This document shows positions 6,105 to 56,554 of a stretch of 64,000 nucleotides of DNA, one piece after another. The DNA is taken from assembly GCA_916610825.1 (NCBI GenBank), contig OU744446.1, positions 34,445,333 through 34,509,332 on the forward strand, given 5' to 3'. The notes under the pieces are model-generated. The model did not search any database and was not told where the DNA came from. It worked only from the letters and a program-made list of their open reading frames with translations. A program made the position numbers and the translations under genes. Source of the DNA: Haliclystus octoradiatus. Lineage: Eukaryota; Cnidaria; Staurozoa; Stauromedusae; Haliclystidae. Position 1 is the stretch's first letter. Each line of letters opens with the position of its first letter.

Positions 6105-6505
6105 TATATACATTGTCAGGAAATATTAGATCACATTTACTGCTTATTCCATTGACAGAAGTTATGGAAAAAGCAAAAAAGGGCTTTGCATCAGCTATCT
6201 TTGTTCATCATGTTTCATATTATCGTCAGCAGTCTATGTAAATCTATTGATTCGACCACCTTAAATTATCACCAGTGGGCGTACATGATTACATAACTAA
6301 AATAAAATAAGGGTTACTTTCAATGTTTTGTGTCCTCTTCGAGCAGATGTTTAATTCATAATATATATCTATCTCCATTTGTATGTGTGCATTACCTTTA
6401 TTTTTGTAGCCATAAATTGTCATTTCATAGTGAACAAGCTTCAAAATCAGATCAAAATTGCAACAAGAGCTTTAAGGTTTCTGATAGAGCAACAAGGCTG
6501 AAGAA

Positions 6506-7381
6506 ATGGCAGGCACCAAGATTACTGATGGAGAGTCTTACACAAATCAAATATTGTTTGGTTCAATATATTTTCTTACAGCTGTTTTCAACATATCAGA
6601 AGCAGTATGCTTATTTGTTACAAGAAAAACATGGCGTAATTTCCAAATAATGACATTTGTCTTGGCATTATACGACTCCTTCATCGGCTTAAGTGGGATC
6701 GTTTCCTTCATAATCTATTTGGCTAACAATTTTCAAAAACTTCGTCATCCAATTTTCTTCTTTTTATTTGGAGGAACTCCAGTTATTTCAAAGTGCATCA
6801 TATTATTAATTTCTGTCGAAAATTTCATAATAATCGCTTCACCTTTGAAACATAGGGATTACCTTACTACAAAATTTACCTGGATTGCAGTTACTTTTAC
6901 TGTTTTAATTGGTACGAGCATATCGGCCTCAGTTTTTTTCCAGCATTCACGTGAAGCTGTTAATTCGAGACTTAAAGAAATTTACATGCCATTTTTATTA
7001 CTTGATTTAATTTCTTTGATTACATTATATGCTGCTATTATAGTTGCTTACAAACGTGGCATGAACAAAATTGGAACACAAAGTACATCTACCGAAATGT
7101 CTAGTACTCAGGCTCGTCTTCCGACAATTGCAGAGCATCCACTTACAAGGCCAATTAATCGCAAAGACAAAGTTTTGATGAAAATTTCTGCTGTTATTGT
7201 TGTTGCGTTCATTATAAGCTTCTTACCATCAATGGTCATTGTTTGGATTCCAAAGTGGAATAAGCACAGACTATTGAGGACTATTCGACATTTGTCTATT
7301 TCCTTATCGTCGTTGGTAAATCCATTTGTTTACTTTTTATCAAAGTTTAAATTGTGTAAACGAAGAAATGCTCATAGTTAA
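6506..7381 (+). CDS. Atypical rhodopsin-like GPCR, single exon, DRY motif replaced
   Basis: This is a predicted seven-transmembrane receptor of 291 aa. Approximate segments are TM1 15-39, TM2 46-73, TM3 87-112, TM4 124-145, TM5 160-183, TM6 225-249 and TM7 258-280. Family A marks are an Asp in TM2 (D57), a Pro in TM6 (P241) and NPFVYF at the end of TM7 (N272-P273). The TM3/loop position of the DR(Y) motif reads E105-N106, so the Arg normally used for G-protein coupling is missing. No Cys sits at 3.25 or in the second extracellular loop. The N-terminus is short (about 14 aa) and without a signal peptide. The start is the first ATG of the frame, and the frame is uninterrupted, so the gene is probably intronless. 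It is paralogous to the genes at 10453-11340 and 56775-57680 and to the relic just upstream. Ligand unknown. It may signal atypically, or be decaying while its frame is still open. Confidence 0.8.
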   Translation: MAGTKITDGESYTNQILFGSIYFLTAVFNISEAVCLFVTRKTWRNFQIMTFVLALYDSFIGLSGIVSFIIYLANNFQKLRHPIFFFLFGGTPVISKCIILLISVENFIIIASPLKHRDYLTTKFTWIAVTFTVLIGTSISASVFFQHSREAVNSRLKEIYMPFLLLDLISLITLYAAIIVAYKRGMNKIGTQSTSTEMSSTQARLPTIAEHPLTRPINRKDKVLMKISAVIVVAFIISFLPSMVIVWIPKWNKHRLLRTIRHLSISLSSLVNPFVYFLSKFKLCKRRNAHS

Positions 7382-10452: not shown

Positions 10453-11340
10453 TCAATCGTCAATATGGATCTTTGTGCATGGCATCATGGGTAAAAAGTA
10501 GACACATGGATTAACCAATGATGCAGCGTAGATAAGTATTGAGACAGTACTGATCAGTTCTATAAAGTGTTTTAGTACTGTATCCATTGGTAACCAGAAT
10601 ACTATCATTGCTGGAATGTAACAAATTGCAAAAAACACAACAACAATAATACAAGAGAAAAACATCGCACGGTCTTTTCTTCCTATCCTTGTAGAATGTT
10701 GACCGTGTGTTGCTTTCTTCATTCTATTTTTATTTGTTACATATGTAGTAATAATAAATATGTATGTGAAACCTACAATAGCACTGTGTATTGCTATAAC
10801 AGGGGCAAGAATATACCGATAGCCATTAACATTAAACTCATCATGTTTATTTGCAAAGTAAAGAGAAACACTCATAACTCCATCAAATATAATACCAGCA
10901 ATTATCAGCATAGATATTCTTTTTTTAGTAAGATGCACTCGATGTTGAAATGGAAATACTACTGCTGCCATTCTATCTAGAGTCAATAAAACAACAAATG
11001 TATTCGATGCAAATGCATTTACCATTATAAGATGCTCCATTGGATTATCTGTTGATTTCTGATTTTTCCAAACATCACTCATTGCTATTGTAAACTGAAT
11101 TATACCAAGTATACCGATAAGAAAATCAGTAATCGATAAGGAAAATAGAATAAAATGATAATTCCGCCATTTTTCAGTGTATTTCCATAGCCAATAAACC
11201 TCTAATATATTAAGAATTAAAACAAATAAAGCGATAGGAAATATAATAATATCTCTCTTTTTAAACTCTCCGACTGTTGCAATTGCAAGCCTATTACCAT
11301 CGCACAGATGATATAATGTCGAATTTGTGTCAAGTGACAT
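10453..11340 (-). CDS. Atypical rhodopsin-like GPCR, single exon
   Basis: This is a predicted 295-aa seven-transmembrane receptor. The extracellular N-terminus is about 30 aa with one N-glycosylation sequon (N6-S-T). TM1 is about 31-52 (N44 at 1.50), TM2 62-86 (D72 at 2.50), TM3 102-121 ending in L-D122-R123-M (a DRM version of DRY), TM4 142-162, TM5 176-200, TM6 226-250 (CYIP in place of CWxP, then FWLP) and TM7 262-284 (N277-PCVYFLP). There is no Cys at 3.25 and none in the loop between TM4 and TM5 (HDEFNVNGYRYILAP), so the disulfide typical of class A receptors is absent. The C-tail is only about 10 aa. Its closest relative here is the receptor at 56775-57680, with shared NGYRYILAP/DGYHYILNP, RKD/NSKE and FWLP blocks. 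The start is the first ATG of the frame, preceded by TATAGAACC-rich DNA, and no intron is needed. Ligand unknown. Confidence 0.85.
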   Translation of the reverse strand: MSLDTNSTLYHLCDGNRLAIATVGEFKKRDIIIFPIALFVLILNILEVYWLWKYTEKWRNYHFILFSLSITDFLIGILGIIQFTIAMSDVWKNQKSTDNPMEHLIMVNAFASNTFVVLLTLDRMAAVVFPFQHRVHLTKKRISMLIIAGIIFDGVMSVSLYFANKHDEFNVNGYRYILAPVIAIHSAIVGFTYIFIITTYVTNKNRMKKATHGQHSTRIGRKDRAMFFSCIIVVVFFAICYIPAMIVFWLPMDTVLKHFIELISTVSILIYAASLVNPCVYFLPMMPCTKIHIDD

Positions 11341-12390
11341 TTTTTTATTTCCTGGTTCTATATTATCCTAGTGATAGATTGTTGACATAAATAAAACGCA
11401 TAGCATGATAGATAGTTTCTCCTGTGGGAAATTATTGTTATGGAAACAAGGGTCTTTCATCCACTCGATCCACAGTTTGAATGTAACACGCGTATTTGTA
11501 AATCATTTTCAATAAACTGTATGATACGACATTATGGTCAAGCAGAAAGGTTTAACAAAAGCTGGTGCAATGCTTTTGTCGGCATTTTCATTTGCCAGGA
11601 CCTGAATATGTTTAGTTCAATTTTGAACATCATTGTATATTAAGCAGTTATTAGATCCATGACTCAAATTATAGACTGTTGACCAAATTATGCAACATGG
11701 GAGAACAAAGATGGTTGAAGCAAAGTATTTATTTCTGCGCTCTTCCCATTGACATTTTCAATCTAAACTCGTAAGATATATTCTCACTTTATATTATGTA
11801 TAATATTATAGAGAATAATATTTAATTAAGCAAAAAGAACACGGTGGATTGATGTAAGATTGTATTACCTTCCCGATAAGCTAACATTAGGTGTTGGCTT
11901 TCTATACCGTTTTCATCAACACTTCTGTATAAGTATGGTAATTAAAATGAGTCAATGTCGATAGACAAGATGGAACTGATTTTTAGATCTTTATTCGATA
12001 AATTCCAACACGGAGGGAACTGCATTTTGCGAGAACTACAGTTTACAGGAGAAAGGATGGTCATGATATTGACCTGATTTTGGGATTAATGATAAGCATT
12101 GATGTGATATGCGCGAATGGATGATATATGAATACACAGAGAATGCTTTATATAATGCTATTATATAATACTAATACAATTTCGAAACAGAGTCCATTTT
12201 AATTTCAAATAGATGTTTATAAATGTTATCTTTGTAAACATGAAACGATAATAGATATAATTTGGTTCAAAAATAACAAAAAAACAAAACTGAAATAACT
12301 ACAGAAACGATGCCGTACTCTACTTCTCAATAAAATCTAAAATTAAAGCTTGCCAAATGACCTAGAGACTATAGACTAATTAGATCCTTG
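11341..12390. other. intergenic, no feature seen
   Basis: This is upstream flank of the minus-strand receptor gene and probably holds its promoter. I see no clear TATA box, conserved motif, exon or repeat end that I can support. Confidence 0.5.
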
Positions 12391-16272: not shown

Positions 16273-17126
16273 TAATAGCAGCGATGACATGAAGACACAA
16301 AGGCCTCAAAATGAAAATATAATTTTTGTTTCGATACGAAGAGTACAAAACGAAAATGAAATAGCAAGCCAAATAAAACACATTAATCATAACACGATGA
16401 TACGAATGATACTACTGTCCACCATTTTGATGGAGAATTGGGAGATTTATCAGCGTACATACGTTTTAAGCAACTCTCTTTTCTATGTCAAGATATGTTA
16501 GGACAGCAGACATAGCTATATTTTTAAGGTCGTAATGTAAGCAGCTAAGCTCCAATTGCACTCTGATAAATAAGATGTATATTAAATCGATAACTGAAGT
16601 TGACTTCGCTATATGATGTTAAGCTTGTTTATGCAATGCGGTGACTTTAATTATGTAATATCATTAAAATCATTAATGCAACATAATAATAAGGAAGATT
16701 ATGGGATAGAATTTGTATAGACTCATCCAAACCAACTGAGACGGAAAAAGTACATCAAAGACATACCCCCTTTTGTCAGTACCAATTTCCTAACCATATA
16801 TTCTAGTGACCATGTTGAATATATCCCCAATGTAACAGACTCAAGCTTTTACTCCAAAATCAAATGTAAATTAATGCTACAACAGCCACATTAACCAATT
16901 CTTAATTAATAAATTTGAGACATATGACAGCGATAAAAGAGACACGATTGGCAACATTTCATTATCTTTTCGACTGCGTCCTGACTAGAAAGAGCAATTT
17001 TAGTCACGTGAGAGTCATGAAGATCAATAGAGAATAGCAGTACTACATTTAAACAAAAGACCTAATACAAACAACTGCATATGATCAATTGCTAAACATT
17101 GAAACTATTTATTTTTTTCCTGGAAA

Positions 17127-19339
17127 TCAGCGGCGGCGGCCACTACGACGACGCCAAAGGGATGGCATTGGATCCGCTCTTTCTTCATCTAATAACAAGG
17201 AACAATGGATGGGAATCAATACCAATGTAATCACAATACTTTTACATAACAATGATCGACATAAGTAGAAAAAAAATTATTGGAATATTTCCATAAAATA
17301 TCAATAAATAATCCGATTACTCGAAGTCTAATGTTCACGGTTAGTGTAATGTCCCGTGGGGGAACTCCAGCTCTTCAGGGACGGAGGATGACACTTTGGA
17401 AAAAGGTAATGTACCAAAAAGTTCTACTAGGATGATTGATTTTAACTAAATACACAAAATGATGCAAAATTCTTGAAAAAGTCAAACATATGCCTACCCA
17501 GAAGCTCCAAAATTTGAAATCTCACGCTCAAAAAGTAATTTCTTAGCTGGATTAGGGACCCAAAAAAGTGGCACGTCCCCGTATAGCCGTCATAGTGGAG
17601 TTACCCCCCGGGTCTAATGCCGTATGTTAATTATCATCGTACATCTTGTGTATAGTTGCACATGATGATGTGTGTTAATATGAGCAGATCCAACCTGACT
17701 TGAATAGCATAAACAACCCAAGCATTCTCAGTATTTGATAACTAACAGCTTTGCCTATAGGATATCATTTGTATTCAATCAGCTGAATGAAATTCATACA
17801 GACATCATGATCTAGCAAATTTGTCACTTGACTTCATTCAGTGGATCATGTTTTTTCGAAGCATTCTACCAATTTAGTGTCAAAGTATATTAAAACTAAT
17901 GATTGATTGTCGTTTCATTATAAATCATTGTAAAAGCTTTTGAGTTTGATCTCTGTCAGGGAAAGGATTACTATAGTGATTAGCAGAGAGTTGACTTTCA
18001 TACAAATAGGAGATTCACAGAATTTTCGAAGGAAGGATACATTATTGCAAATGTCGTAATTTATTATCAAAGAAATATTCACGAAATATTTAAGTACCTT
18101 GCACAGCTTCTGCCTCATCTTCGATGTCTTCATTTTCATCTGCATAAGAAAAATACACAATAGTTCGGAGTCTAGAAATGTACTACTTCCAGTCAAGCCT
18201 TTGTGATCATTTGTGATATTCACCGTGCACACAGCTCTGATTTAAATCAAAGTAAACGCGGTGTATTTAAACACAAAGGAGTACTTGTATTTAGGCGGCA
18301 TACCCATGGATGTGTCTTTTGTACTATTTTGGTTTCCCGCTGTAAAATTTGCTGTTTCCAGCTGTGAATCCGGTATTCATCATTTGAAGTGCCAATCACC
18401 TTGTTAAGAGGTGGTGCCCCAATCGTACTTCAAAAGCAAACAGTCAGGAAATACTATCTATTCTTCTGGGAGTTTCAGGTTTCTAGCAAGATTCATAAAA
18501 GGATACACATATTCGTATACAAAGAGGAATTATCGAAGAGGACGGTTATTTAGACTGGCAGACTATCCTTCAGGCATATAAGCATAACTGCCATGTATAA
18601 CCATTAGATAATCAATCTGACCTGTTCTACTCTCTTCGCTTCATAGTTTACAAAGTCATTTGAATGTCTGCTGTGATATTTTTACCCATTTCCCTTGGAC
18701 CAGTCTATACTGTTTATTGGGATGCGTAAATTATATCTTACCGTACTCTCGTTCATCTTCATCACGGACAGAACCTAAACACGAGTTTAAGAAAGTCAAT
18801 ATATTAGATGCCTCAATTGGTTCTATAATTGCAATTTAGTACAAGTACAAGCATTTTACTAATAGTGAATAGTAATAGTAAATAGTGAATCCAGTTGAGC
18901 ACTGTTTCTAAAACCTTCTATTCCGGTAATCACAATGTTAGAAAATCACAGTTTAATTGTTTTCAAAAGTGATAGATGGGCTGTATAAAAGTAGCTGTTT
19001 GTATCTCGTATGATATACACCCGGTCTAGCAAACGATTCTGAATCTTGTGGGTATTACACAAACAACATAAAGGACTACGTTTACTTAAGATAGTAAGAA
19101 ATTTTCTTTCAGTACCCCATTCGACTTTAACAAGGCCAATTATTTCTAGATGCTGTCCCTCAACCTTGAAATATTTTTTACTTATCATGAAATGCTTGCA
19201 ATCAGTTTGTCGATTAGTATTATTTTCGAATAGTGAAACAGCAACATCATTTTCAAATAATATTTCAGCTTAAATAAATTCACATACCAATGGCAAAAGC
19301 AACTCCAAAGAGCAATACGAAAAGTAATGTCAATTTCAT
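17127..19339 (-). CDS. Secreted cationic peptide precursor, copy 1 (truncated mature peptide)
   Basis: A five-exon gene (first exon non-coding) encoding about 62 aa. Coding exons are 19339-19288, 18774-18742, 18139-18098 and 17188-17127; all junctions are GT-AG and all introns phase 1. Exon 1 gives the signal peptide MKLTLLFVLLFGVAFAIG. Exon 2 encodes SVRDEDEREY and exon 3 DENEDIEDEAEAVQ, a strongly acidic propiece. The last exon starts DEER and continues ADPMPSLWRRRSGRRR, then TGA. The layout (signal, acidic spacer, processing-type EER, cationic Arg/Trp tail) matches precursors of linear antimicrobial peptides in many animals. Function is inferred from this architecture, not from a recognised family. 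Compared with copy 2, a deletion of about 24 bp removes the part encoding the Trp-Gly-Pro tail and brings in an early stop, leaving a 16-residue tail. An AATAAA follows within 20 bp. The minus strand has a TATA box upstream (19833-19840). A neuropeptide-like or DNA-binding role is possible but less likely. Confidence 0.8.
17352..17611. mobile_element. MITE of the GGGGGGTAACTCC family (copy B), in last intron
   Basis: The right end (reverse-complemented) begins CGGGGGGTAACTCCAC. The left end, near TCCCGTGGGGGAACTCCAG, is slightly decayed. Flanks GTGTAATG (17344-17351) and GTCTAATG (17612-17619) form an imperfect 8-bp target duplication. It sits between exons 4 and 5 of the peptide gene. An orthologous insertion is present in copy 2. 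Confidence 0.75.
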
Positions 19340-19760
19340 CTAAAAAATATAATTGAATATAGAATAAATAATTCAAAAATCACATAGAACGTAACAGTAA
19401 TACAAAACACACGCGTAAAGCAGATAACGTAATCAAATCACAGCGATATCCTGATTTACGACTAAGTAGACTAGTTGTATTTTTCAAAATTCACAATAAA
19501 AACATACAGTTTCTTCAACATATCATCACAAATCACAACATATGATGTTCCTATAATTGCTTCGCACGTACAGTAGAATGCAAAATGAAAAAAATTATTT
19601 TGATTGATTTGTGAATTTTCAACCTAACGAAAATCGTTCAAATTAACCAAGTTCTAGATTAAACTGTAAACAACAGTATTTGTATTCTATCTTCAGAGAG
19701 TCAAAAATAAAATACAGACTGGTGCTTTTATTTACATGATTATTACAAATATTCGCATAC

Positions 19761-19810
19761 CTTGGAATTAAGTTGATTTGAATCTTCGTAAGATACCAGA
19801 TCTTCAATGC
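19761..19810 (-). other. Non-coding first exon of peptide gene copy 1
   Basis: Predicted from the TATA box 25-30 bp upstream and a good donor at 19760 (CCAAG then GTATGCG). The next exon begins directly with ATG after TATATTTTTTAG, so the start codon is the first triplet of exon 2. The exon may contain a very short upstream frame (ATG ... TGA) if transcription starts early enough. The exact transcription start is inferred. Confidence 0.55.
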
Positions 19811-19832
19811 TTATCAAACATGTTAATACCAA

Positions 19833-19840
19833 CTTTTATA
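19833..19840 (-). promoter_or_regulatory. TATA box of peptide gene copy 1
   Basis: TATAAAAG on the minus strand, followed by GTTGGTATTAA and the predicted first exon. The same box and spacing are kept in copy 2 (23947-23954). Confidence 0.65.
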
Positions 19841-20050
19841 TGAAAAATTTTCTTCAATATAACAATCAATTATTGTTATATGCTTTATTATAATTCCAAC
19901 TATATTTGCCGCACAACAATCAAAACATATTATGTAAGACGATAAATTTGAGTTGGTTCTTGATTCTGTTATCCTGATTATAATAGAAAATTGTCTTTCA
20001 TTTTGTTAACTAGAGGAAGTAGTTAGAAACGTTTTGTCTTTACATAAAAG

Positions 20051-20618
20051 AAAATCTGAGCGCTCAGTTCGTTTCAACCCTCAACCAAATACTATCTATT
20101 ACTCACCAAATTAAAGAATTATTACATACAATATTATTACCTCGTATTCACATCAATTATTACCGTCTATTTACATTTTCATTATTATATCGTCATTACA
20201 AATTATATTCACTAGAACTTACATTACACGTACTATATTATCAATTAATTAATATTACAACATTTAGCATTACCCTTATTTAGCATTAAACATTTACACA
20301 TTTTTTCATATACAATTCAAATTTATTATCTCAATGTACCATAAATATAGTTGTTATTACATCTTGTACGACTCCGTCGTTTTTGCGGGGGAGCTATGTA
20401 GTGTATAGGATTTTAGCCTCTTATCATTAAGCCTCTCAATCATGTATTCCAATATTTAACCATTGAATTCACTTATATAACAACATCAAATAACAGTTCT
20501 CTGCCTACTGTCATTATAACAAGACATAAATAACGATTCATCGCTGTCTTGTCTATGTGTTTCTAGTAAAGATTCATCCTATATCTTAATCCTCCGCTAA
20601 ATCCACTATCGTTGCACT
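20051..20618. other. spacer between tandem units
   Basis: Very AT-rich sequence with imperfect TTATTACA-type motifs and no coding exon. It has no counterpart in the flanking units. Confidence 0.5.
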
Positions 20619-21180
20619 ATGTTAGGACAGCAGATATAGCTATATTTTTGCTGTCATAATGTAAGCAGCTAAGCTCCAATTGCACTATGATAAATAAAAT
20701 GTATATTAAATCGATAACTGATGATAACATAATGATAAAGAAAGATTATAGCATAGAATTTGTCTAGAAACTTCGTAAATACTTGATTGCGTTAGAAATC
20801 GTGTGCACCATCCAAACCACCTGAGACAGAAAAAATACATCAAAGATAGACCCCCTTTGGTCAGTACCACCGTTCCTAACCATATATTCTAGTGACTACG
20901 TTGAACGTAACAGACCCAAGCTTAATCCAAAATGAAATGTAAATTAATGCTACAATATCCACATTAATCAATTCTTAATTAATAAATTTGAGACATATGA
21001 CAGCGATAAAAGAGACACGATTGGCAACATTTCATTATCTTTTCGACTGCATCCTGACTAGGAAAATCAATATTAGTCACATGAGAGTCATGATGATCAA
21101 TAGAGAATAGCGGTACTACATTTAAACAAAAGCCCTAATACAAACACTGCATATGATCAATTGCTAATCGTTGAAACTAT

Positions 21181-23437
21181 TTATTTTTTGCCTGGGCCTG
21201 GAACACCCCAGCTGAATCTTAATCGGCGGCGGCGGGTACCACGACGACGACGACGCCAAAAGAATGGCTTTGGATCCGATCTCTCTTCATCTAATAACAA
21301 CAAGCAATGAATGGGAATCAATACCAATGTAATCACAATACTTTTACATAACAATGATCGACATAAGTAGAAAAAAAATTATTGGAATATTTCCATAAAA
21401 TATCAATAAATAATCCGATTACTCGAAGTCTAATGTTCACGGTTAGTCTAATGTCCCGGTGGGGGGGGGTAACTCCCGCTTTTCAGGGACGGGGGGAGTG
21501 CCACTTTTGATAAAGGTAAAGTACCCAAAAAGTTCCTTAAATTCTGTTGATGCTACCCAAAAGTTCTACCAAGATGATTGATATTAAGTAAATACACAAA
21601 AATGATGCAAAAAGTTTTAAAAAATTCTTGAGAAAGTCAAAAAATAGGATACCCAGAAGCTCCAAAATTTGAAATCTCATACCCAAAAAGTTTTTCTCAG
21701 CTGGAATATGGACCCCAAACAAGTGGCACGTCCTCGTATAGCCGTCATAGTGGAGTTACCCCCGGGTCTAGTGTCGTATGTTAATTATCATCGTACGTCT
21801 CGTGTATAGTTGAACATGATGATGTTTGTTAATATGAGCAGATCCAACCTGACTTGAATAGAATAAATAACAAAAGTATTCTCAGTATTTGATAACTAAC
21901 AGCTTTGCTATAGCATATTACTTGTATTCAATCAGCTCAGCAGCTGAATGAAATTCATACAGACATCATGATCTAGCCAATTTGTCGCTTGATTTTATTC
22001 AGTGGATCATGTTTTTTCGAAGCATTCTACCAATGTAGTGTCAAAGTATATTAAAACTAATGATTGATTGTCGTTTCATTCTTAATAAATCATTGTAAAA
22101 GCTTGGACCTCTGTCAGGGAAAGGATTACTATAGTGATTAGCAGAGAGTTGACTTTCATACAATTAGGAGATTCACAGAAGATTCGAAGGAAGGGTACAT
22201 TATTGCAAATGTCGTAATTTATTATCAAAGAAACATTTACGAAATATTTAAGTACCTTGCACAGCTTCTGCCTCATCTTCATTGTCTTCATTTTCATCTG
22301 CATAAGAAAAATAGACAATAAATCGAAATCTAGAAATGTACTACTTCCAGTCAAGCGTTTGTGATTATTTGTGATAGTCACCATGCACACAGCTCTTATT
22401 TAAATCAAAGTAAACGCAGTGTATTTAAACACAAAGGTGTACTTCTATTTAGGTGGAAAACACGTGGATGTGTCTTTTGTACTATTTTCCGCTGTAAAAT
22501 TTGCTGTTTCAAGCTGTGAATCCGTTATTCATCATTTGAGATGCCAATCACCTTGTTAAGAGGTGGTGCCCCAATCGTACTTCAAAGGCAAACAGTCAGG
22601 AAATACTATGTATTCTTTTTGGAGTTTTAGGTTTCTAACAAGATTCATAAAAGAAAGGATACACATCCGTATACAGACTGGCAGACTGGCAGACTATCCT
22701 TGAGTCACATAAGCATAACTGCCATGTATAACCATTATAGATAACATTTTGGCCTGTTCTACTCTCTTCGCTTTGAAATTTACCAAGTCATTTGAAAGTC
22801 TGCTATGATGTTTTTACCCATATCTCTTGTACCAGTGTATTGGAATGCGTAAATTAAATCTTACCGTACTCTCGTTCATCTTCATCACGGACAGAACCTA
22901 AACACGAGTTTAAAAAAATCAATATATTAGATACCTCAATTGGTTCTATAATATTGCAATCTAGTACATGTACAAACATTTTGCTAACAGTGAATAGTAA
23001 TAGTAAATACTGTAATATATCCAGTTGAGCACTGTTTCTGGAACCTTCTATTCCGGAAATCACAATGTTAGAAATTAACAGTTAATTTATAATCAAAACT
23101 GACAGATGGGCTGTATTATTAAACTGTTTGTATCCGGTATGTTTAACACCCGGTCTAACAACGATTCTGAATCTTGTGGGTATTACACAAACAATGAAAG
23201 GGACTACGTTTATTTGAGATAGTAAGAAATTTTTCTTTCAGTGCCCCATTCGACTTTAACAACGCCAATTATTTCTGCATGCTGTCCCTCAACCTTGAAG
23301 AGTGTTTTTCCGTATCATGAAATGCTTGCAATCAGTTTGTCGATGATTATTTACATAATATTTGATTTTAAATAAATTCACATACCAATGGTAAGAGCAA
23401 CTCCAAAGAGCAATACGAAAAGTAATGTCAATTTCAT
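21181..23437 (-). CDS. Secreted cationic Arg/Trp-rich peptide precursor, copy 2 (full length)
   Basis: A precursor of 78 aa from coding exons 23437-23386, 22897-22865, 22297-22256 and 21290-21181, with GT-AG introns all in phase 1. Residues 1-18 are the signal peptide (MKLTLLFVLLFGVALTIG). Residues 19-45 form an acidic propiece (SVRDEDEREY, then DENEDNEDEAEAVQ and DEER, about 16 Asp/Glu). The last exon then encodes SDPKPFFWRRRRRGTRRRR followed by LRFSWGVPGPGKK. That tail carries 13 Arg/Lys against one Asp, two Trp, and ends Gly-Lys-Lys, which could be trimmed and amidated. The acidic part would neutralise the basic tail during secretion, as in many antimicrobial peptide precursors; the role in host defence is inferred. 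One domain per exon with uniform phase-1 introns favours exon duplication or swapping. TAA overlaps an AATAAA signal. The gene is transcribed toward copy 1. Confidence 0.85.
21454..21765. mobile_element. MITE of the GGGGGGTAACTCC family (copy C), in last intron
   Basis: Left end TCCCGGTGGGGGGGGGTAAC, right end (reverse-complemented) CGGGGGTAACTCCAC. Target duplication GTCTAATG at 21446-21453 versus GTCTAGTG at 21766-21773. It occupies the same intron position as copy B, so it inserted before the gene duplication. Confidence 0.8.
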
Positions 23438-23878
23438 CTAAAAAATATAATTGAATATAAAAAAATAATTAAAACATCACATAGAACGTAACAGTGATAC
23501 AAAACACACGCGTAAAGCAGATAACGTAATCAAATCACAGCGATATCCTGATTTACGGCTGATTAGACTAGTAGTATTTTTCAAAATTCACAATAAATAA
23601 ATATAGTTTCTTCAACATATCATCATCACAAATCACAACATAAGATGTTCCTATAATTGCTTCGCACGTATAGTAGAATGCAAAATGAAAAAAATTATTT
23701 CGATTGATTTGTGAATTTTCAACCTAACGAAAATCGTTCAAATGATCTAAGTTCTAGATTAAATTGTAAACAACAGTATTTGTAATCTACCTTCAGAGAG
23801 TCAAAATATAGATATATATATATATATATATGAATACAGAATGGTGCTTTTACATGGATATTACAAATATTCACATAC

Positions 23879-23920
23879 CTTGGAATTTGATTTGAATTTT
23901 CGTCAGATAGCAGATCTTCA
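23879..23920 (-). other. Non-coding first exon of peptide gene copy 2
   Basis: Donor after CCAAG (then GTATGTG) at 23878. It contains an ATG whose short frame runs through the splice junction and stops at TGA overlapping the main ATG (…AGATGA…). That would be an upstream frame ending exactly at the start codon, if the junction is as predicted. Transcription start inferred from the TATA box. Confidence 0.5.
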
Positions 23921-23946
23921 ATGTTCATCACACACCTTAATACCAA

Positions 23947-23954
23947 CTTTTATA
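23947..23954 (-). promoter_or_regulatory. TATA box of peptide gene copy 2
   Basis: TATAAAAG on the minus strand in the same context (then GTTGGTATTAA) as copy 1. Confidence 0.65.
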
Positions 23955-24165
23955 GGAAAAATTTTATTCAATACAATAATCAATTATTGTTTTTCGCTTT
24001 ATCAAAATTCCTATTATTTTTGCCGCAAAACAATCAACACATTTTATGCAAGACAATAAGTTTGAGTTGGTTCTTGATCCTTTAAAATCTGATTATAATA
24101 GAGAAATTGTCCAAAGAGAGGAAGAAGTTTGAAACCCTTTGTCTGTATGCGTTTCCACATAAGGA

Positions 24166-26148: not shown

Positions 26149-27572
26149 TTTCTCGACTTTAAATATTTCTCACATTAAAACAATAGCAATACGAGCAATA
26201 CAATTCACTTCATTTCTTAGTATGTCGTACTCAGACATGTATCGAAATAATTTAGAAAACTACATGAAAAAACATTAAGTTTATATTTGGAAACAGCCGT
26301 TTAGGTTGAACTAAGTGTGATTTCATCACTTTTCAGATTTTCAAGAAAGCCGGTTTTTCACATTCTCGATTTTAAATATTTCTTACACTAAAACGAGCAA
26401 TACGATTCACTTCATTTTTTTAGTATGTCATACTCCAACATGTATCAAAGCGATTGAAAAAAGCTAGATGAAAAAATATTAAGTTTATATTTGGAAACAG
26501 CCATTTAAGTTGACCTAAGTGTGATTTCACGTCTTTTCAGATTTTCAAGAAAGCCGGTTTTTCACTTTCTCGATTTTAAATATTTCTTACACTAAAACGA
26601 GCAATACAATACATTTAATTTCTCAGTATGTCATACTCAGACATGTATCAAAGCGATTGAAAAAAACTAGATGAAAAAATATCAAGTTTATATTTGGAAA
26701 CAGCCATCTAGGTTGGCCGAAGTGTGATTTCACGTCTTTTCAGATTTCGAAAAAGCTGGTTTTTCACTTTCTCGACTTTAAATATTTCTCACACTAAAAC
26801 GAGCAATACAATTCACTTCATTTTTTAGTATGTCCTACTCAGACATTTATTGAAATAATTAAAAAAAATTAAAGAAAAAATATTAAGCTTATATTTAGTA
26901 ACAGCCATCTAGGTTGGCCGAAGTGTGATTTCACGTCTTTTCAGATTTCGAATAAGCTGGTGTTTCACTTTCTCGACTTTAAATATTTCTCACACTACAA
27001 CGAGCAATACAATACACTTAATTTCTCAGTATGTCATACTCAGACATGTATCGAAATAATTTAGAAAACTACATGGTAAAATATTAAGCTTATATTTAGT
27101 AACAGCCATCTAGGTTGGCCGAAGTGTGATTTCACGTCTTTTCAGATTTCGAAAAAGCTGGTTTTTCACTTTCTCGACTTTAAATATTTCTTACACTAAA
27201 ACGAGCAATACAATTCACTTCATTTCTTAGTATGTCATACTCAGACACTTTTTGAAATAATTAAAAAAAACTAGATGAAAAAATATCAAGTCTATATTTA
27301 GTAACAGCCATCTAGGTTGGCTGAAGTGTGATTTCACGTCTTTTCAGATTTCGAAAAAGCTGGTTTTTCACTTTCTCGACTTTAAATATTTCTCACACTA
27401 AAACGAGCAATACAATTCACTTCATTTCTTAGTATGTCATACTCAGGCACTTATTGAAATAATTGAAAAAAACTAGATGAAAAAGTATCAAGTCTATATT
27501 TAGTAACAGCCATCTACGCTGTCCTAAGTTTGATTTCACATCTTTTCAGATTTTGAAAAAGCTGGTTTTTCA
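26149..27572. repeat. Tandem satellite, about 202-bp unit, seven copies
   Basis: TTTCTCGA(C/T)TTTAAATATTTCT recurs at 26149, 26362, 26566, 26768, 26969, 27170 and 27372, so periods are 213, 204, 202, 201, 201 and 202 bp. Each unit has the order CTCGACTTTAAATATTTCT, ACACTAAAACGAGCAATAC, TCATACTCAGACA, GGAAACAGCCATCTAGGTTG and TGTGATTTCACGTCTTTTCAG. More diverged units of about 197 bp follow to about 28030. Units in reverse orientation appear from 28570 to 29700. Confidence 0.95.
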
Positions 27573-28569
27573 CTTTTTTCAACTTGGTAGGTCTTTCAAA
27601 TGAGAACGAGGCGGGCTGATGACATGATATCACTCTATATGGCTCTCATACATGTGTATCGGATACAATTAAAAGGATTTCATTCAATTATATAACGTTT
27701 TTATTCAGATACAGCCGTTTAAGTTGATGTGGGGGGGGTATTAAATAGGATTTTCAAAATGCCGGTTTTCACTTTGTCCAACTTGCAGGTCTCTCAAATG
27801 AGCACGAGGCCAGCACATCATCCGTTATCGCTAGATATAGTTCTTAGATATATATCGAATTTAATTCAAAATGTTTCATTGTTATACATCTTATCTATGT
27901 TTAGATACAGTCATTCAAGTTGTGATCTAGTTAGAATTTTAGGGGTTTTCAAAATGCCAATTTTTGACTTTCTCCAACTTGTAGGTCTTGTACTATCCGA
28001 ATGTATTTTTGGCGTTTGCCATTGGGAGTAGGCTCCGAAACTGATCTTTCGTTTGTTCATCCATTTCTGGCATTTTGATTCTTTAATGATTATTGTATTT
28101 CCAATTAGACTGAATGGCATACCCTTTTTTCTATGATTCTGTGTGACATTTTCAAAATTATAAGATTTTCAGGACTTCATGGGTACCAAATCGTTCCTCT
28201 TATCAATCAATCAACATTATATCCATCGAATTACAAACATACTTTTTATATATTCTACAGCTCCATGTACATGTATATTGTATTATTGAATGTTCTTGTA
28301 TTAATTCATTATCAATTTCCACTTACGTATGTATCAACCCAGTAGCCCATATTTGCATAAGCATTGATGACACCAAATATATAATTTTAACTTGACTTTG
28401 TGACGAATTGATCTATCACAAATCAAAATCTTCTTGTATATTAACTATTATGCACCTTTATGTATGCTTGGAATAAATATCAAAACGCTGGTATATGAAT
28501 GAACCAACAATTATATGTAGAAATTTTCCATATACTTGATACATTTGTGTTGAACAATATCTAGTGATA

Positions 28570-41500: not shown

Positions 41501-44500
41501 AGGGCTCTGTTCTCGGTCCTTTATTGTACATTTTAGTTATTAACGATATTATTGATTGCCTTCATCGTGATTGTCATATTAAGCTGCTGATGGCGCGAAA
41601 TTTTACTCTGCGCGTGAATCTGAATCTAATGAATCATTGGCTACCACTCTTGACAGTTTCTGTTCCTGGCCAAAAGATTGGCTACTCCAAATTGCGTTTG
41701 AAAAATGACATTCAGCTTCATTTGGAAATACCAATATTCCTCGTCTACTTTTCTCATTGTCAGACCATCAATTAGACGATGTCAAGCAGATTAGAGATCT
41801 TGGAATTATTGTAACATCAGACATGAAAACCTCTGTACAGTGTGCAAGTTTAGTTTCAAAAGCCTTTTCAAGATCCTATTTGATATTTACGTGCTTTGTA
41901 TTATCCAATATCAAGATATTAATGTTGTAATACCTTGCCTATGCTAGACCGATTTTAGAATCGGATACTCCTGTATGTCACCCTATCTTGTCAAAAACAT
42001 TAAAAAAATCGAAAGAGTTCAACGTAAATATACTCGATATATTTGAAAAATTGGAAAAGTACCATATATAGACTACCTATATATGGTATATAGAAACTCT
42101 TGAATTAAGAAGGATCAAATTTGATCTATATTTAGTTTACAAAGTATTAAATAACCTTGTAGATATAAATGAATTATTTACCTTCGATGTTAACAAATAT
42201 AAAACATGCCTGGATATTGTTATGCGGGTACTTATAGCTATTAAACTAGGAGAGCAAAATAATACGACCAAGCTCGTTCAGATATCAGAATAGAATCAAA
42301 GTTATAATATAAAATGACAGGGGTTACAAACAGAGGAGAGGGGAAGCCGATATTACATAACATACTCCCGCTTATAAAAAAAATCACCGCCCCGGTGATT
42401 AACATCTAAATATTTAAATTTAATAATAGCATAAAGTAAAAATAGATAATTATAATAAAATATTGTGAATAATTAAAAAAAATATATTGTGATTGTTCAA
42501 TAAAGTGTAAAATATTTAACCAGAATATAACTAGTAGGTAGCTATGAAATGTTTAATTTTAAATTAGATCTTTTAATTATTTGAATCTTTAATATCTTTA
42601 TGGTACTTATTAATTAATAACAGGACAGCTTCGCTTCTTAATGATTTGCTAGGCTCCCAAGTAGCGTCTGTCACGGGATAGTCTTTCCATTTTACCAAAT
42701 AACTCATATCACGTCCACGTTTGCGGCAGTCTAGTATGGCTTCAATTGGGTAATATCCATCCGGTAGTTGTTCTTCAGGATCATCCGATTTAAAGTCACT
42801 GCGACGATCAATCCAAGGTTCCAGATTACTTACACTGACTTACTTATACTGGAGCATACGTATATACGGTTGATTGTCGTACAACACGATAAAAATTATT
42901 ACCAAGTGATTCTACTATTTTATACGGTCCATCAAAAGCAGGAAGTAATTTGGAAGAGACATTGTCACTACGTTGATGTAAACGTTTTCTAACTAAATCT
43001 CCGATGTTAAATATAACATGACGAACGCGTTTATCAACTTGTTTTTTCATAGATTTAGCTGTTAGTTGATTATGATGACGTACAACTGCATGCGCTTTTA
43101 CTGCAAGTTCTGCAAAATGTGTAGTAGTAAATGGTCCATTTGGATGGACGGTGTCTAATTGACTATGCGTCCAAACATCTAATGGCGTATTAGCTTCACG
43201 CCCAAATAATGCATAAAATGGTGATACTTTAGTATGTGCATTAGGCGTTGTATTATAAGCATAAGCAATGTGTGGTAAAAATTCATTCCACGAAGTATAC
43301 TCTGGATTAACATAATGTTTGAGCATATTGATGACGTCAGCATTTCGACGCTCCGTCCGCCCATTACAACGCGGATGGTACGGAGCAGTAAATCTTTGAG
43401 TAAACTTTAGTCTAGTAGCAATAGCATTCATTAATTCATTTCGAAATGCACTACCACGATCAGTTAAAATTTCTTTAGGCATACCATAATGTAAGAATAC
43501 ATGATTAACTAAAAATTTTGCTACAGATGCAGCATCGGTAGACTTAGTAGCTTTTAATATAGTGAATCGACTAAAATGTTCAATAAAAACTAAGATATGT
43601 CGATGTCCTTTAGCGCTTGGTGGCGATAGTGGACCAATATGATCTAGACTAATCCGATCAAAAGGTTGATCTGCAGGTAGCGGATTAAGAGTGCCAGATT
43701 CTGCAACACGAGGTTTTTATTAAATTGACACGTCGGACAAGAGCCAACATAGTCTTTAACGTCATAATAAGCTTTAGGCCAATAATATTTATCAACTAGA
43801 CGTGCCCAGGTTCGTTTTTGTCCTAGATGACCAGATGTAGGTATATCATGCAATTCTGTTAAAATAGCTGCACGTAAAGTGATAGGTACGTATAATTGTA
43901 CTCTAGAAGCGCCATTAGAAATACGATATACTAAACCTCCAATTAAATGAAATATCTTAGAACGAAGTATATCTTGTTTGGAAGGCTTAGGAATATTAGT
44001 TAAATTATTATTATTAGATATAGCTAAATTGTAATTAGTAATTCTGTCTAAGCTTTCCGTTATGGAAAAAATAATCGGATCATCCGATTGCTCTTTGATT
44101 AAATTAATATCAACATTGTTCGGATTGGATATAGAAGTAATGCCAACATGAATAGTTGATGGATCAATAATATCAGTTGATATTGAATCAGTAGTAAATA
44201 ACACTTTGTTTATAACATCATTTTCGTAAATCCTTGATAAAGCATCGGCGTCATAATTCTCCTTACCGGGTCGATGTACAATCTTCATAAAACCAATATA
44301 TTCTTGTAAAAGTAAACTCCAACGTACAAGTCGTGATGTAGTATGTTTAGTGGTGAATAGCCAGACCAATGCAGAATTATCTGTGATGACTGTGAAACTT
44401 CTACCACCTAGATAAGACCGAAAACGTTCAACAGATTTAATAACTGCTAATAGTTCTTGTTCTGAAACAGTATAATTTTCTTCATGTTTAGAGGGTCGTG

Positions 44501-46011
44501 GGTTCGATCCCCTCATTGGGCTCCAATTGTTATGCGGGTACTTATAGCTATTAAACTAGGAGAGCAGAATAATACGACCAAGCTCGTTCAGATATCAGAA
44601 TAGAATCAAAGTTATAATATAAAATGACAGGGGTTACAAACAGAGGAGAGGGGAAGCCGATATTACAATATGCAAATATGCATTGGCATAACAATATAGC
44701 CTAAAACTGAAAAGCATGCAGGTCCATCCTAATGCTAACAGAAGCATCAAGAACTTTTTCTGTTCACGAGTCATTTCGTGGTGGAACGACCTACCCAACG
44801 AAATTGTAATTGCACCAACGTTTGCAACCTTCAAATCAAGACTAGATGCAATTGATTTATCAAAGCGTTGTGAATGTTAATTTTCTTTTGCCTTTAAATT
44901 CAATACAAATTGCAGTCTCACAGGGATTAAATTTTATGCCTCTTTTATGTTTAATGTCTTTTTCACCAGTGGCTTTGCACCATGCAAAAAATATGCAAGA
45001 TTAAACTCTGACAGCGTAAAATTTTATCAAAGCAGATTATTTGTTGATAATCAACTTCTTTTAAAACAGTAGATTCATTCTTTGATTGGGCTAATTACTG
45101 GCAGCTCCGTAAATTATATCTTTTCTGGGAACTTTATGGTACTTGGATTCTTTTAGCCACCTATGCGAAATTCTCTTTAGTCAAGCTGCAATGCTGCCAA
45201 AACGCAATATTGCATGTTTCTCTTGTTCAAGATATTACTACAAATGAAGTTTAATAACCTGTAAGACATATGTTGGACGCTTGGTCTATTCCGATTCATT
45301 TTGGAAATTGTATCTGTTGAAATACAATTTTATTAGGCTGCATATATAAGTGAATCGTATATTTCTTGTATAATTTATGTGTCACTTCTAATATTTCTTC
45401 CGTCTAATATAACAAAAGAAAGACTGCAAAAGTTCAGATTCTAGGTTAGTCTAATTTTCCTAAAAACGATAATTATTTTACGTTGGTAAATATATTTTCT
45501 CAAACAGTTCGTATGTTAATAATAAATTTGTATCAAGTAAACCATTATTTGTTTCAAGAATATCAATATTTCTTGAAGCAAGTAATATATGTTTGCTCAA
45601 AGCAAGCAATATGATTGCTTGAAGTAAGCAATACTATTTTTTTATAAGCAATCCTATTCTCAAACAGCCAATATTATTGCTTAAAAGAATCAATATTATC
45701 ACATCACTAGACTAGTTTATTGTTCAAAATAGGCAATAATTTCATTGCTAAAAGGTAATCTACCCGATTCACATTATATATATTGTCATTGAAACTTCAA
45801 GTGTTTCGTGAAAAAAAATCCACCTGAAATTAATCCATGAATGTAATATTATTAATTTCAGAACCATGAAAAATGCCCTTGTGGCCCAAAATCTGAGCCA
45901 GTATTTAAAGTAGACACTAGTGGTGCATTACAAATGTCTTGCCGAAAAAAAGGATATCTGGCACTCTGCATGTGTATGTCATCGGAATCAGACGCTGCAC
46001 TTTCTAACTAA
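35505..46011 (+). CDS. Cys-rich secreted or type II membrane protein, multi-exon
   Basis: Exons supported are 35505-35840, 39400-39527 and 45862-46011 (ends in TAA). Exon 1 follows TTTCTATATTTAG, and its ATG gives a basic start (MENIKNKKFKTH) and a hydrophobic stretch FFLLLVLGFNLLQIVLLSQV, a signal peptide or anchor. After it comes a PAN/apple-like stretch (TSTKCCILCINNKQLCEF … IICEFLTSDNDQLSADEVSEF). Exon 2 gives GYGGCQSDCSSGIVKF … IVCSAEYWMEC. Exon 3 gives EKCPCGPKSEPVFKV … MSCRKKGYLALCMCMSS, with about ten Cys over exons 2-3. Exon 2 must be entered in phase 1 but exon 1 ends in phase 0, so at least one more exon lies between. An exon-like block at 37667-37735 (CCATAG … AACA-GTAAGG) is phase-neutral and does not by itself resolve this. 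The 40-bp repeat at the exon 1 donor is notable. No family is confidently recognised, and the PAN assignment is tentative. Confidence 0.6.
35831..35910 (+). repeat. Perfect 40-bp tandem duplication over a 5' splice site
   Basis: ACCTGTCACAGTAAGTAGAC plus the next 20 bp occurs twice head-to-tail (35831-35870, 35871-35910). Both copies carry an identical GTAAGT donor. Using the second donor would add 40 nt including an in-frame TGA. Confidence 0.95.
37560..37905. repeat. Diverged local duplication in intron
   Basis: GACATCACTTCGAAATTAAT…ATCCTTTATATTTTT near 37573-37618 is repeated as GACATCAATTTGAAATTGAT…ATCCTTTATAAATTTT near 37842-37890. No coding content is assigned. Confidence 0.6.
37667..37735 (+). 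other. Possible 69-bp internal exon of the Cys-rich gene
   Basis: Preceded by AAATTTCCATAG and followed by GTAAGG. In the frame that joins exon 2 correctly it reads PFASSSSCLSSGTASSIHII, a Ser-rich linker with one Cys. Being a multiple of three it keeps phase 1, so an upstream exon ending in phase 1 would still be needed. Confidence 0.35.
38770..39229. mobile_element. hAT-type MITE, CAGGGCCGTC ends, 8-bp target duplication
   Basis: The left end CAGGGCCGTCTCCAG and right end (reverse-complemented) CAGGACCGTCCC lie between two perfect GATGCAAA repeats (38762-38769, 39230-39237). Eight-bp duplications and CAGGG ends are typical of hAT elements. The 460-bp interior has no transposase; the open frame starting at 38912 is part of it and is not a gene. 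Confidence 0.85.
39581..40823 (-). mobile_element. Internally deleted Ty3/Gypsy retrotransposon (gag and start of protease)
   Basis: LTRs of about 150 bp lie at 40677-40823 (5', minus strand) and 39581-39732 (3'). They begin TGTGGCATAA and end ATATCACA, and the flanks share GTTG (39577-39580, 40825-40828). TGGCGCTGCGTAATGG after the 5' LTR holds the primer site and the gag ATG (40662). Gag is frameshifted between frames 40662-40438 and about 40460-39807. It ends in two Cys knuckles (CKFCDMNYPPRKC, CARCRKLGDFIECC) and the protease start (NMIQDSGAACFS). Reverse transcriptase, RNase H and integrase are deleted. The polypurine tract AGAAGGAGGGAAGT precedes the 3' LTR. It lies antisense in the last intron of the Cys-rich gene. 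Confidence 0.85.
42218..44667 (-). mobile_element. Ty3/Gypsy chromovirus-type element, gag-to-RT deleted
   Basis: LTRs of 140 bp lie at 44528-44667 (5') and 42218-42357 (3'), TGTTATGCGG…GATATTACA on the plus strand. The 4-bp target duplication ATAT interrupts the LINE frame. On the minus strand the 5' LTR is followed two bases later by TGGAGCCCAATGAGGGGATC, a primer site that stays tRNA-like for about 35 nt. The sequence then jumps directly into RNase H, so gag, protease and reverse transcriptase are deleted. RNase H, integrase and a C-terminal chromodomain remain, with two frameshifts. It is nested in the LINE within the last intron of the Cys-rich gene. Confidence 0.9.
42573..44516 (-). pseudogene. 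Gypsy RNase H-integrase-chromodomain remnant
   Basis: The frame from 44516 starts inside the primer site (MRGSNPRPSKHEEN) and enters RNase H (YTVSEQELLAVIKSVERFRS … VITDNSALVWL … KIVHRPGKENYDADALSR). It continues to the integrase zinc region (HDIPTSGHLGQKRT … CPTCQFNKN). One base is lost near 43715. Integrase core blocks follow in the next frame: LDHIGPLSPPSAKG, ILTDRGSAFRNE and PRCNGRTERRN (the D,D,E set) to a stop at 42844. After another shift a chromodomain is readable: GYYPIEAILDCRKRGRDMSY, LVKWKDYPVTDATWEPSKS, ending at 42573. The chromodomain places it with chromovirus-like Gypsy elements. It is not functional as it stands. Confidence 0.85.
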
Positions 46012-55938: not shown

Positions 55939-56554
55939 ATTACCAACAGCAATGGATGATCAAAGAAAAACTCATGTAGACTGTAACCGCAGTCACTCTA
56001 CTAATTTAAATAGTTGTATCTGTGTGTGTTAGTACCAAGATAATACGCAACAAATGAACTGCCAAATAACACAAATGAAGCTGCTCAATGCTGATATGTT
56101 GATAAGTTGTTAAGTTGTTTGGTTGGTTTTTCTTAAAGGAATAATTAAATCACATAAATTAATACAAAGTCGTTTAATAAATCAAATACAATGTAAACTA
56201 GGTTATAACACAATTACAGATAAAAAACATACCTTTGGTGTTCGTTCCAGCACAGATAACAACACCTATTAATAATATTTTACAATTCGTTCGAGTCAGC
56301 GTAGCTCTTCTCTATACTTTGGCTTTCTCCGACTGACTAACATTTACAATAATTTTACGTATTGAACACCAAAGGCGGAAAATATATTTATGATGACTAA
56401 TTTTCGATCTTTCTAGATATTTACTTACAATATATTAACAAGATGACTAACTAGCTAATACGTCAAGAATAAGTGTACCTTAGTAGCTATGGTAACGGCG
56501 TCTAAATGTATAATGGCGGCAGCAAGAATATAATATAATGAATTGTCGGCTACA

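What the first reader, a model, noticed from the sequence alone, without database searches (positions are those of the whole stretch)
16495..24165. Tandem pair of unrecognised secreted cationic-peptide precursor genes
Two duplicated minus-strand genes encode a signal peptide, about 27 residues of acidic propiece and an Arg/Trp-rich C-terminal peptide, each part on its own phase-1 exon. Full-length copy 2 has 13 basic residues in its 32-residue tail. The architecture is that of antimicrobial peptide precursors, but I do not recognise the family. Exons as small as 33 and 42 bp make it easy for gene finders to miss.
Basis: partly seen in the sequence, partly recalled or inferred. Interest (0 to 1): 0.88.

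Follow-up and report, generated by a model that had tools for sequence, protein, structure and literature searches.

The report
Arminin-like peptide gene family in stauromedusa
Two small neighbouring genes in a stalked jellyfish belong to a large family of secreted, arginine-rich peptides built like the arminin antibiotics of Hydra, which have been described as unique to Hydra; whether they share an origin and kill bacteria is still to be tested.

Summary
In detail: two tandem minus-strand genes, each with a 52-nt signal exon, 33- and 42-nt acidic exons and an Arg-rich last exon, joined in phase 1. The host is the stauromedusan Haliclystus octoradiatus. The pair belongs to at least 33 related loci, some incomplete or broken, in three subfamilies on chromosomes 1, 3, 7 and 8. 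The signal peptide is conserved; the cationic tail diverges. Of 25 A/B last exons, 24 have an X-(Pro/Ala)-X-Pro junction and 16 a Gly-(Lys/Arg) amidation ending. No Pfam family fits and no database protein scored. The closest known kind is Hydra's arminins: same layout, junction and ending. Profile similarity beats composition-preserving shuffles, but mainly through the junction. Best reading: arminin-like antimicrobial peptide precursors. True homology to arminins, against published 'Hydra only' statements, is possible but unproven. Transcription and activity are untested; window copy 1 is short and lacks the amidation ending.

The parts
23947..23954 (-). copy 2: TATAAAAG, probable TATA box
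   Evidence: exact in W1, W2 and N1 of the 9 leaders aligned, N2 differs by one base
23879..23922 (-). copy 2: 5' untranslated leader exon (3' end by splice site, 5' end inferred from the TATA box)
23386..23437 (-). copy 2: coding exon 1, 52 nt, signal peptide MKLTLLFVLLFGVALTI
22865..22897 (-). copy 2: coding exon 2, 33 nt, acidic GSVRDEDEREY
22256..22297 (-). copy 2: coding exon 3, 42 nt, acidic DENEDNEDEAEAVQ
21181..21290 (-). copy 2: last exon, 110 nt, DEERS + DPKP junction + Arg/Trp-rich tail ending GKK and stop
19833..19840 (-). copy 1: TATAAAAG, probable TATA box
19761..19808 (-). copy 1: 5' untranslated leader exon (5' end inferred)
19288..19339 (-). copy 1: coding exon 1, 52 nt, signal peptide
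18742..18774 (-). copy 1: coding exon 2, 33 nt, identical to that of copy 2
18098..18139 (-). copy 1: coding exon 3, 42 nt, acidic
17127..17188 (-). copy 1: last exon, 62 nt, short Arg-rich tail ending at a TGA; no amidation signal

Best explanation
These genes encode precursors of secreted, arginine-rich, in most members C-terminally amidated peptides of antimicrobial type, and the window pair is two of at least 33 loci of an expanded Haliclystus family. Shown from sequence: signal exon, acidic micro-exons, an X-P-X-P junction, an Arg-rich tail, Gly-Lys(-Lys) endings in most members, multiplication, and faster change of the tail than of the signal. Inferred: the signal peptide is removed on secretion; the acidic part neutralises the cationic tail until proteolysis at the junction, probably just before Lys-Pro; Lys-Pro protects the N-terminus, basic residues are trimmed at the C-terminus and the glycine becomes an amide; the freed peptide damages or enters bacteria, so that a varied repertoire serves as an epithelial defence or microbiome filter, as reported for arminins in Hydra. 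It works like an arminin; whether it descends from the same gene is open (I put that at about 0.4).
For: 13 of 14 A-type gene models have an unbroken frame through four chained coding exons; N6 and N14 add two more chains; B and C members can be read in the same layout. Over 10 A-type genes (45 pairs, not independent) dN/dS is 0.19 in the signal peptide; dN is 0.057 there against 0.418 in the tail, with 10.5 gapped residues per pair. Junction X-(P/A)-X-P in 24 of 25 A/B last exons; over all 31 last exons D(A/P)xP in 30 and D(A/P)(K/R)P(W/F/Y) in 22. Tail ends G(K/R)1-2 in 14 of 23 distinct A/B tails against a shuffle mean of 1.23 and a maximum of 6 in 10,000 shuffles. Net tail charge +4 to +23. 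The genome has matches to the Pfam family of the amidating monooxygenase, 22 of 25 over the cut-off. Passages of PMC6909153 say that cnidarian N-terminal processing uses acidic and other residues and stops at X-Pro, and that G before K/R signals amidation. Hydra arminins share the layout: 10 of 10 have D-A-K-P-(W/Y) and end GKK.
Against: No transcript, peptide or activity data were reachable. Nine of 25 A/B last exons lack the Gly-(Lys/Arg) ending, window copy 1 among them. Pooled dN/dS in the tail is 0.62, so this crude measure shows relaxed or mixed constraint, not positive selection. Some copies look broken or incomplete: N10 has a stop in exon 2, B5 loses the usual ending, and only the signal exon was found for N7 and N12. 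Acidic and Arg-rich low-complexity stretches inflate similarity scores: Haliclystus profiles score 24-31 against frog decoys. In B and C members phase 1 was a condition of my scans and exons were picked partly by acidity and splice-site rules, so these are not independent evidence there.
Confidence: 0.75

Rival explanations
1. Convergent rather than homologous to arminins: an independently arisen staurozoan host-defence peptide family that reached the same layout because cnidarian processing enzymes favour the same junction and amidation signals. (This rivals only the descent from arminins, not the function.)
For: With the junction columns masked the profile scores fall to 26.3 (A), 29.3 (C) and 29.0 (all), level with the frog decoys at 24-31; the C-type profile scores 30.9 against the frogs, above its masked arminin score. 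With the junction kept and the rest shuffled by region, 6 of 100 (C) and 4 of 100 (all Haliclystus) reach the real score; with junction and tail kept, 31 of 100 for C. Arminin P0004 finds nothing in the genome, and the arminin 1a match has E 1.24. PMC10945409 section 4 (part 1 of 2) reports no arminin homologues in other cnidarians searched.
Against: Shuffles within all three regions never reach the real score (0 of 60; 0 of 100 twice). The one match of arminin 1a in the genome lies in a member of this family, and two shuffled arminins match nothing.
Confidence: 0.5
2. Precursors of amidated signalling peptides (neuropeptide or hormone type) rather than antimicrobials.
For: Gly-Lys endings, X-Pro start and acidic residues before the peptide are also marks of cnidarian neuropeptide precursors (PMC6909153 passages).
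Against: One peptide per precursor; tails differ strongly between paralogues in length and sequence, unlike a receptor ligand; the three staurozoan neuropeptide families of that survey are multi-copy. The survey asked for at least three copies per precursor, so it could not have seen single-copy ones.
Confidence: 0.12
3. Venom or nematocyst peptides: cationic cytolysins, or polycations that condense nematocyst contents.
For: Stauromedusae sting; fast-changing cationic multigene families also occur in venoms (general knowledge).
Against: No cysteine framework: of 25 A/B last exons only N13 and N14 hold a Cys, one each. Not tested by expression.
Confidence: 0.08

Closest known systems
Arminins of Hydra (ten entries: 1a, 1c, 2a, 2b, 3a, 3b, 375, 524, 4364 and one unnamed)
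   Same: Signal peptide of similar length, acidic middle, D-(A/P)-K-P-(W/F/Y) junction, Arg/Trp-rich tail, GK(K) ending, clustered paralogues with a conserved front and a variable tail.
   Different: The arminin pro-sequence (KEEIKNE...EDLEEESD) is not recognisable once the junction is masked; Haliclystus tails are much richer in Arg runs, A/B tails end GK, GRK or GKK or lack the signal; C-type tails hold two Cys; precursors are 62-111 aa against 81-89; three subfamilies on four chromosomes.
Trichoplax arminin-like peptides AMP1-AMP4 (PMC12013895)
   Same: Signal peptide, acidic N-terminal part, basic C-terminal part, C-terminal glycine for amidation (passages).
Frog skin peptide precursors (dermaseptin/temporin/brevinin type)
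   Same: Conserved signal and acidic pro-part, variable cationic tail (general knowledge).
Hydra periculins
   Same: Clustered antimicrobial genes reported as confined to Hydra, with anionic and cationic halves.
   Different: Periculin-1 is listed with eight cysteines (table entry); 23 of 25 A/B last exons have none.

Membership tests
Arminin | signal peptide followed by a conserved negatively charged region and a poorly conserved positively charged tail | tested here: met
   definition from a PMC4820302 passage. The acidic exons are conserved in charge more than in sequence (pooled dN/dS 1.15)
Arminin | junction D-A-K-P-W/Y at the start of the tail | tested here: inconclusive
   10 of 10 arminins; D(A/P)(K/R)P(W/F/Y) in 22 of 31 family last exons, D(A/P)xP in 30 of 31; nearly always Pro instead of Ala (Ala in N4 only)
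Arminin | C-terminal Gly-Lys-Lys (amidation) | tested here: inconclusive
   10 of 10 arminins end GKK; 16 of 25 A/B last exons end G(K/R)1-2, 5 of 6 C-type end GKK; window copy 2 yes, copy 1 no
Arminin | arminin-specific pro-sequence recognisable apart from the junction | tested here: not met
   junction masked: scores 26.3 (A), 29.3 (C), 29.0 (all), level with frog decoys at 24-31
Arminin | same exon phases as Hydra arminin genes | not testable with these tools
   Hydra gene DNA not held
Arminin | endodermal epithelial expression and antibacterial activity | not testable with these tools
   no expression or assay data
Cnidarian neuropeptide precursor | several similar peptide copies each followed by GR/GK sites | tested here: not met
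   one tail per precursor with at most one terminal G-K site; criterion from PMC6909153
Any Pfam family | match above the curated cut-off | tested here: not met
   two matches to the window precursor, both below cut-off and in its charged stretch; (E up to 0.01): none for a B-type precursor or for arminin 1a itself. C-type not scanned

The most novel reading that the evidence does not exclude
Arminins are not a de novo gene family confined to Hydra: they descend from a medusozoan ancestor, and stauromedusae keep and have greatly expanded them (A, B and C subfamilies on four chromosomes), with C-type genes nearest to Hydra's. The antibiotic repertoire thought to be Hydra's own would then be one branch of an old cnidarian mucosal peptide system.
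Probability: 0.4. Interest if true: 0.85.

Novelty: new variant of a known kind. Interest (0 to 1): 0.72.

Why it matters
Arminins are a leading case of lineage-restricted genes that shape a host's microbiome; PMC10945409 (section 4, part 1 of 2) calls them strictly confined to Hydra and proposes de novo birth. A large family of the same layout in Staurozoa either pushes their origin far back or shows that the same architecture arose twice; both can be tested with existing staurozoan transcriptomes. It also gives 23 distinct predicted A/B tails plus C-type ones for assay, including B-type tails with repeated RRR-hydrophobic units. Internal coding exons of 27-54 nt would make such genes easy to miss, though no gene annotation was checked.

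Tried and rejected
Homologue searches with the window precursor (113 candidates, none at E up to 10) and with an 11-member profile (the 7970 candidates sharing most words, none at E up to 1) gave nothing. The same database returns ten Hydra arminins, so it covers cnidarian entries, but it needs shared five-residue words. PDB profile search gave five weak matches, best E 0.05. NCBIfam gave four sub-cut-off matches to the window precursor. Arminin P0004 found nothing in the genome, against the arminin link. In one search the P0001 row is invalid (the script split it at an early 'KP') and I dropped it; for the other nine arminins, in order P0002-P0010, the score of the C-type last exon is reached by 0, 0, 2, 6, 14, 5, 1, 10 and 132 of 1000 region shuffles, that of W2 by 12, 45, 0, 51, 6, 120, 28, 234 and 72, that of N4 by 50, 44, 17, 56, 5, 126, 115, 57 and 218: clear for C-type, weak for most A-type pairs. 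Two shuffled arminins searched in the genome are a thin control: the tool warns that an empty answer by itself shows nothing. A structure prediction was not run: a model of a short Arg-rich peptide would not decide anything. The DPP-type peptidase family could not be searched.

An early idea that both X-Pro dipeptides are removed stepwise was set aside: PMC6909153 (passage) says cnidarian processing stops at X-Pro, so Lys-Pro is the more likely mature start, as printed for arminin 1a in PMC12011183 (table passage). By the same rule Asp-Pro could also be the start.
Full report
Observation. Copy 2 (W2) joins 23437-23386, 22897-22865, 22297-22256 and 21290-21181 into a 78-residue protein; copy 1 (W1) joins 19339-19288, 18774-18742, 18139-18098 and 17188-17127 into 62 residues; introns run GT-AG and all junctions are phase 1. 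A leader exon ends at 23879 and 19761, 75 and 79 bases below the start of a TATAAAAG. The unit is a 4.1-kb tandem duplication. Coding exons 1-3 are 95-100% identical between copies and introns plus flanks 91%; the last exon is 86% identical with 30 gapped bases. In the alignment the five gaps before the shared TAA are of 3 or 18 bases.

Host. The genome search places the window at G000:C1:34445333-34509332 in a 262-Mb, 33-contig genome. Contig lengths 39,977,743 (C1), 35,873,919 (C4), 21,348,345 (C8) and 20,733,292 (C10) fit chromosomes 1, 3, 7 and 8 of Haliclystus octoradiatus jrHalOcto1.1; the genome note gives the longest chromosome and the N90 length to the base, and both agree with C1 and C10 (PMC9975415, part 1 of 2 of the text read).

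A large family. DNA of the leader region finds 14 matches (12 on C4, 2 on C1) and DNA of the signal exon 19 (16 on C4, 3 on C1), those on C4 all at 33.39-34.19 Mb of chromosome 3. I fetched targeted stretches and rebuilt genes. Fourteen A-type models, the window pair included, have four chained coding exons of 52, 33 or 39, 42 and 62-119 nt; 13 of 14 are free of internal stops, N10 has one in exon 2. N6 and N14 add full chains and N5x a chain without its signal exon, which was not seen in the stretch held; for N7 and N12 only a signal exon was found. A second, B-type subfamily (eight loci) has a 55-nt signal exon, MKLTLLIVLLFGAALAMA or near, where one was seen (not for B6); seven of the eight tails carry repeated RRR-hydrophobic units, while N3, placed here by its signal exon, does not; it lies on chromosomes 1, 3 and 8. 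A third, C-type subfamily of six loci lies on chromosome 7, four of the six with a signal exon found. That is 33 loci: 19 A, 8 B, 6 C. Genome searches score only the best candidates, so more may exist; against that, some of the 33 are incomplete or broken. Profile scores tie the three together: A-B 99, A-C 88, B-C 67. For B and C, phase 1 was a condition of the scans and exons were chosen by splice site and acidity, so those traits are partly built in; A-type exons were located by DNA similarity.

How they change. Over 10 A-type genes with 33-nt second exons (45 pairs, pooled, not independent) dN/dS is 0.19 in the signal peptide, 1.15 in the two acidic exons, 0.49 in the DEERxDPKP stretch and 0.62 in the aligned part of the tail; dN is 0.057 in the signal and 0.418 in the tail, where pairs also differ by 10.5 gapped residues. 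So delivery is conserved and payload changes fast; this crude measure does not show positive selection on the tail.

Processing marks. All 25 A and B last exons found were tabulated: 24 have X-(Pro/Ala)-X-Pro at the start of the tail; 16 end in Gly plus one or two basic residues. Among 23 distinct tails 14 do so, against a shuffle mean of 1.23 and a maximum of 6 in 10,000. Net tail charge runs from +4 to +23. Passages of a neuropeptide survey that included five staurozoans say that cnidarian N-terminal processing works at acidic and other residues and stops at X-Pro, and that Gly before Lys/Arg is the amidation signal (PMC6909153). So the mature form of W2 is most likely Lys-Pro-Phe-Phe-Trp-... 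to Gly-Pro-amide (inference; Asp-Pro is a possible start too). The genome has matches to the amidating-monooxygenase Pfam family, 22 of 25 over the cut-off. A carpenter-ant paper describes removal of E/D-A/P dipeptides by a dipeptidyl aminopeptidase in an antimicrobial precursor (PMC3415428 passage), a model for loss of the Asp-Pro before Lys-Pro.

Known relatives. No Pfam family fits, and neither the single protein nor an 11-member profile found anything in the 5.8-billion-protein set. That set holds UniRef and nr entries: a recalled arminin precursor found ten Hydra arminins, read and aligned. Arminins have the same order of parts; 10 of 10 carry D-A-K-P-(W/Y) and 10 of 10 end GKK, and 22 of 31 Haliclystus last exons carry D(A/P)(K/R)P(W/F/Y). 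The A-type profile against the arminin profile scores 40.7 (probability 94%); 0 of 60 shuffles within all three regions reach it. Searching the host genome with arminin 1a gave one weak match, E 1.24, in the C-type last exon ELEEQMHDSMERENQDPKPWGGRRRRRRRRWGIRFR..., ending LIGKK; two shuffled arminins matched nothing, and arminin P0004 matched nothing either. The C-type profile aligns with arminins over 58 columns from the first residue to KPW, 38% identity, score 42.0, 0 of 100 region shuffles reaching it.

Limits of that link. When the junction columns are masked, scores drop to 26-29, the level of the frog precursors used as decoys, 24-31. With the junction kept and the rest shuffled, 1 of 100 (A), 6 of 100 (C) and 4 of 100 (all) reach the real score; with junction and tail kept, 2, 31 and 3 of 100. 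So the similarity beyond composition is mainly the junction. I therefore call the family arminin-like and do not file it as arminin. Shared descent and convergence under common processing rules are about equally likely to me.

Literature. PMC10945409 (section 4, part 1 of 2, and passages) states that arminin and periculin genes are strictly confined to Hydra, with no homologues in the other cnidarians examined, and infers de novo birth. PMC6369191 (passage) also says arminins are only found in Hydra. Trichoplax peptides have been called arminin-like by architecture (PMC12013895 passages). Of 43 papers that hold the word arminin, 40 were listed; passages of three that deal with other cnidarians (PMC8954376, PMC12383608, PMC3722494) mention arminin only as a Hydra or hydrozoan peptide. 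Searches for staurozoan antimicrobial peptides, Haliclystus peptides and arminin-like cnidarian peptides listed no paper whose title or shown abstract describes this family; PMC11820242 counts three predicted antibacterial peptides from Staurozoa without naming them in the passages seen. Supplements could not be opened, so earlier notice there is not excluded.

The window pair itself. W2 has the marks of a working gene. W1 keeps signal, acidic part and junction, but its tail stops at a TGA after 11 residues, without the amidation signal; it may be a short functional variant or a decaying copy.

Noticed in passing
window 50014-55959 (-): BEL/Pao-type retroelement: a 1401-aa open frame with Peptidase_A17 and integrase zinc-binding matches over cut-off (reverse transcriptase and integrase core below it), beside a 579-aa frame that looks gag-like by eye.
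   Followed up: partly
window 42844-44555 (-): Fragment of another LTR-type element: integrase core match in 42844-43716; the overlapping frame to 44555 looks like the RNase H part by eye, not tested.
   Followed up: no
window 6488-7381 (+), 10453-11367 (-), 56775-57725 (-), 61731-62810 (-): Four single-frame rhodopsin-type receptor genes; three of four pass the Pfam 7tm_1 cut-off and the first lies just under it.
   Followed up: partly
window 26191-27576: Array of about seven 202-bp tandem repeats, some 2.2 kb upstream of copy 2.
   Followed up: no
C4:33389673-33389804 (-) and C4:33486637-33486768 (-): Extra partial copies of the leader region lie head-to-head with the leaders of N1 and N2, perhaps a sign of how the cluster rearranges.
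   Followed up: no
L057-L062: Tails of B0-B6 are built of repeated RRR plus two or three hydrophobic residues, with unit number differing between paralogues; by eye such a repeat does not give a simple amphipathic helix.
   Followed up: partly
L064-L068: Five of six C-type tails hold two cysteines with five residues between them (for example CLSNPLC, CLQRRWC), so a small loop may form, unlike A and B types.
   Followed up: no
C4, C5 and C11 of the host genome: Matches to the copper monooxygenase (amidating enzyme) family are numerous and clustered: 25 exon-level matches on three contigs, which looks like several genes rather than one.
   Followed up: no
C4:34146722-34146766 (+): A further copy of the 33-nt exon near N16 on the other strand; the stretch held ends soon after it, so any gene there was not seen.
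   Followed up: no
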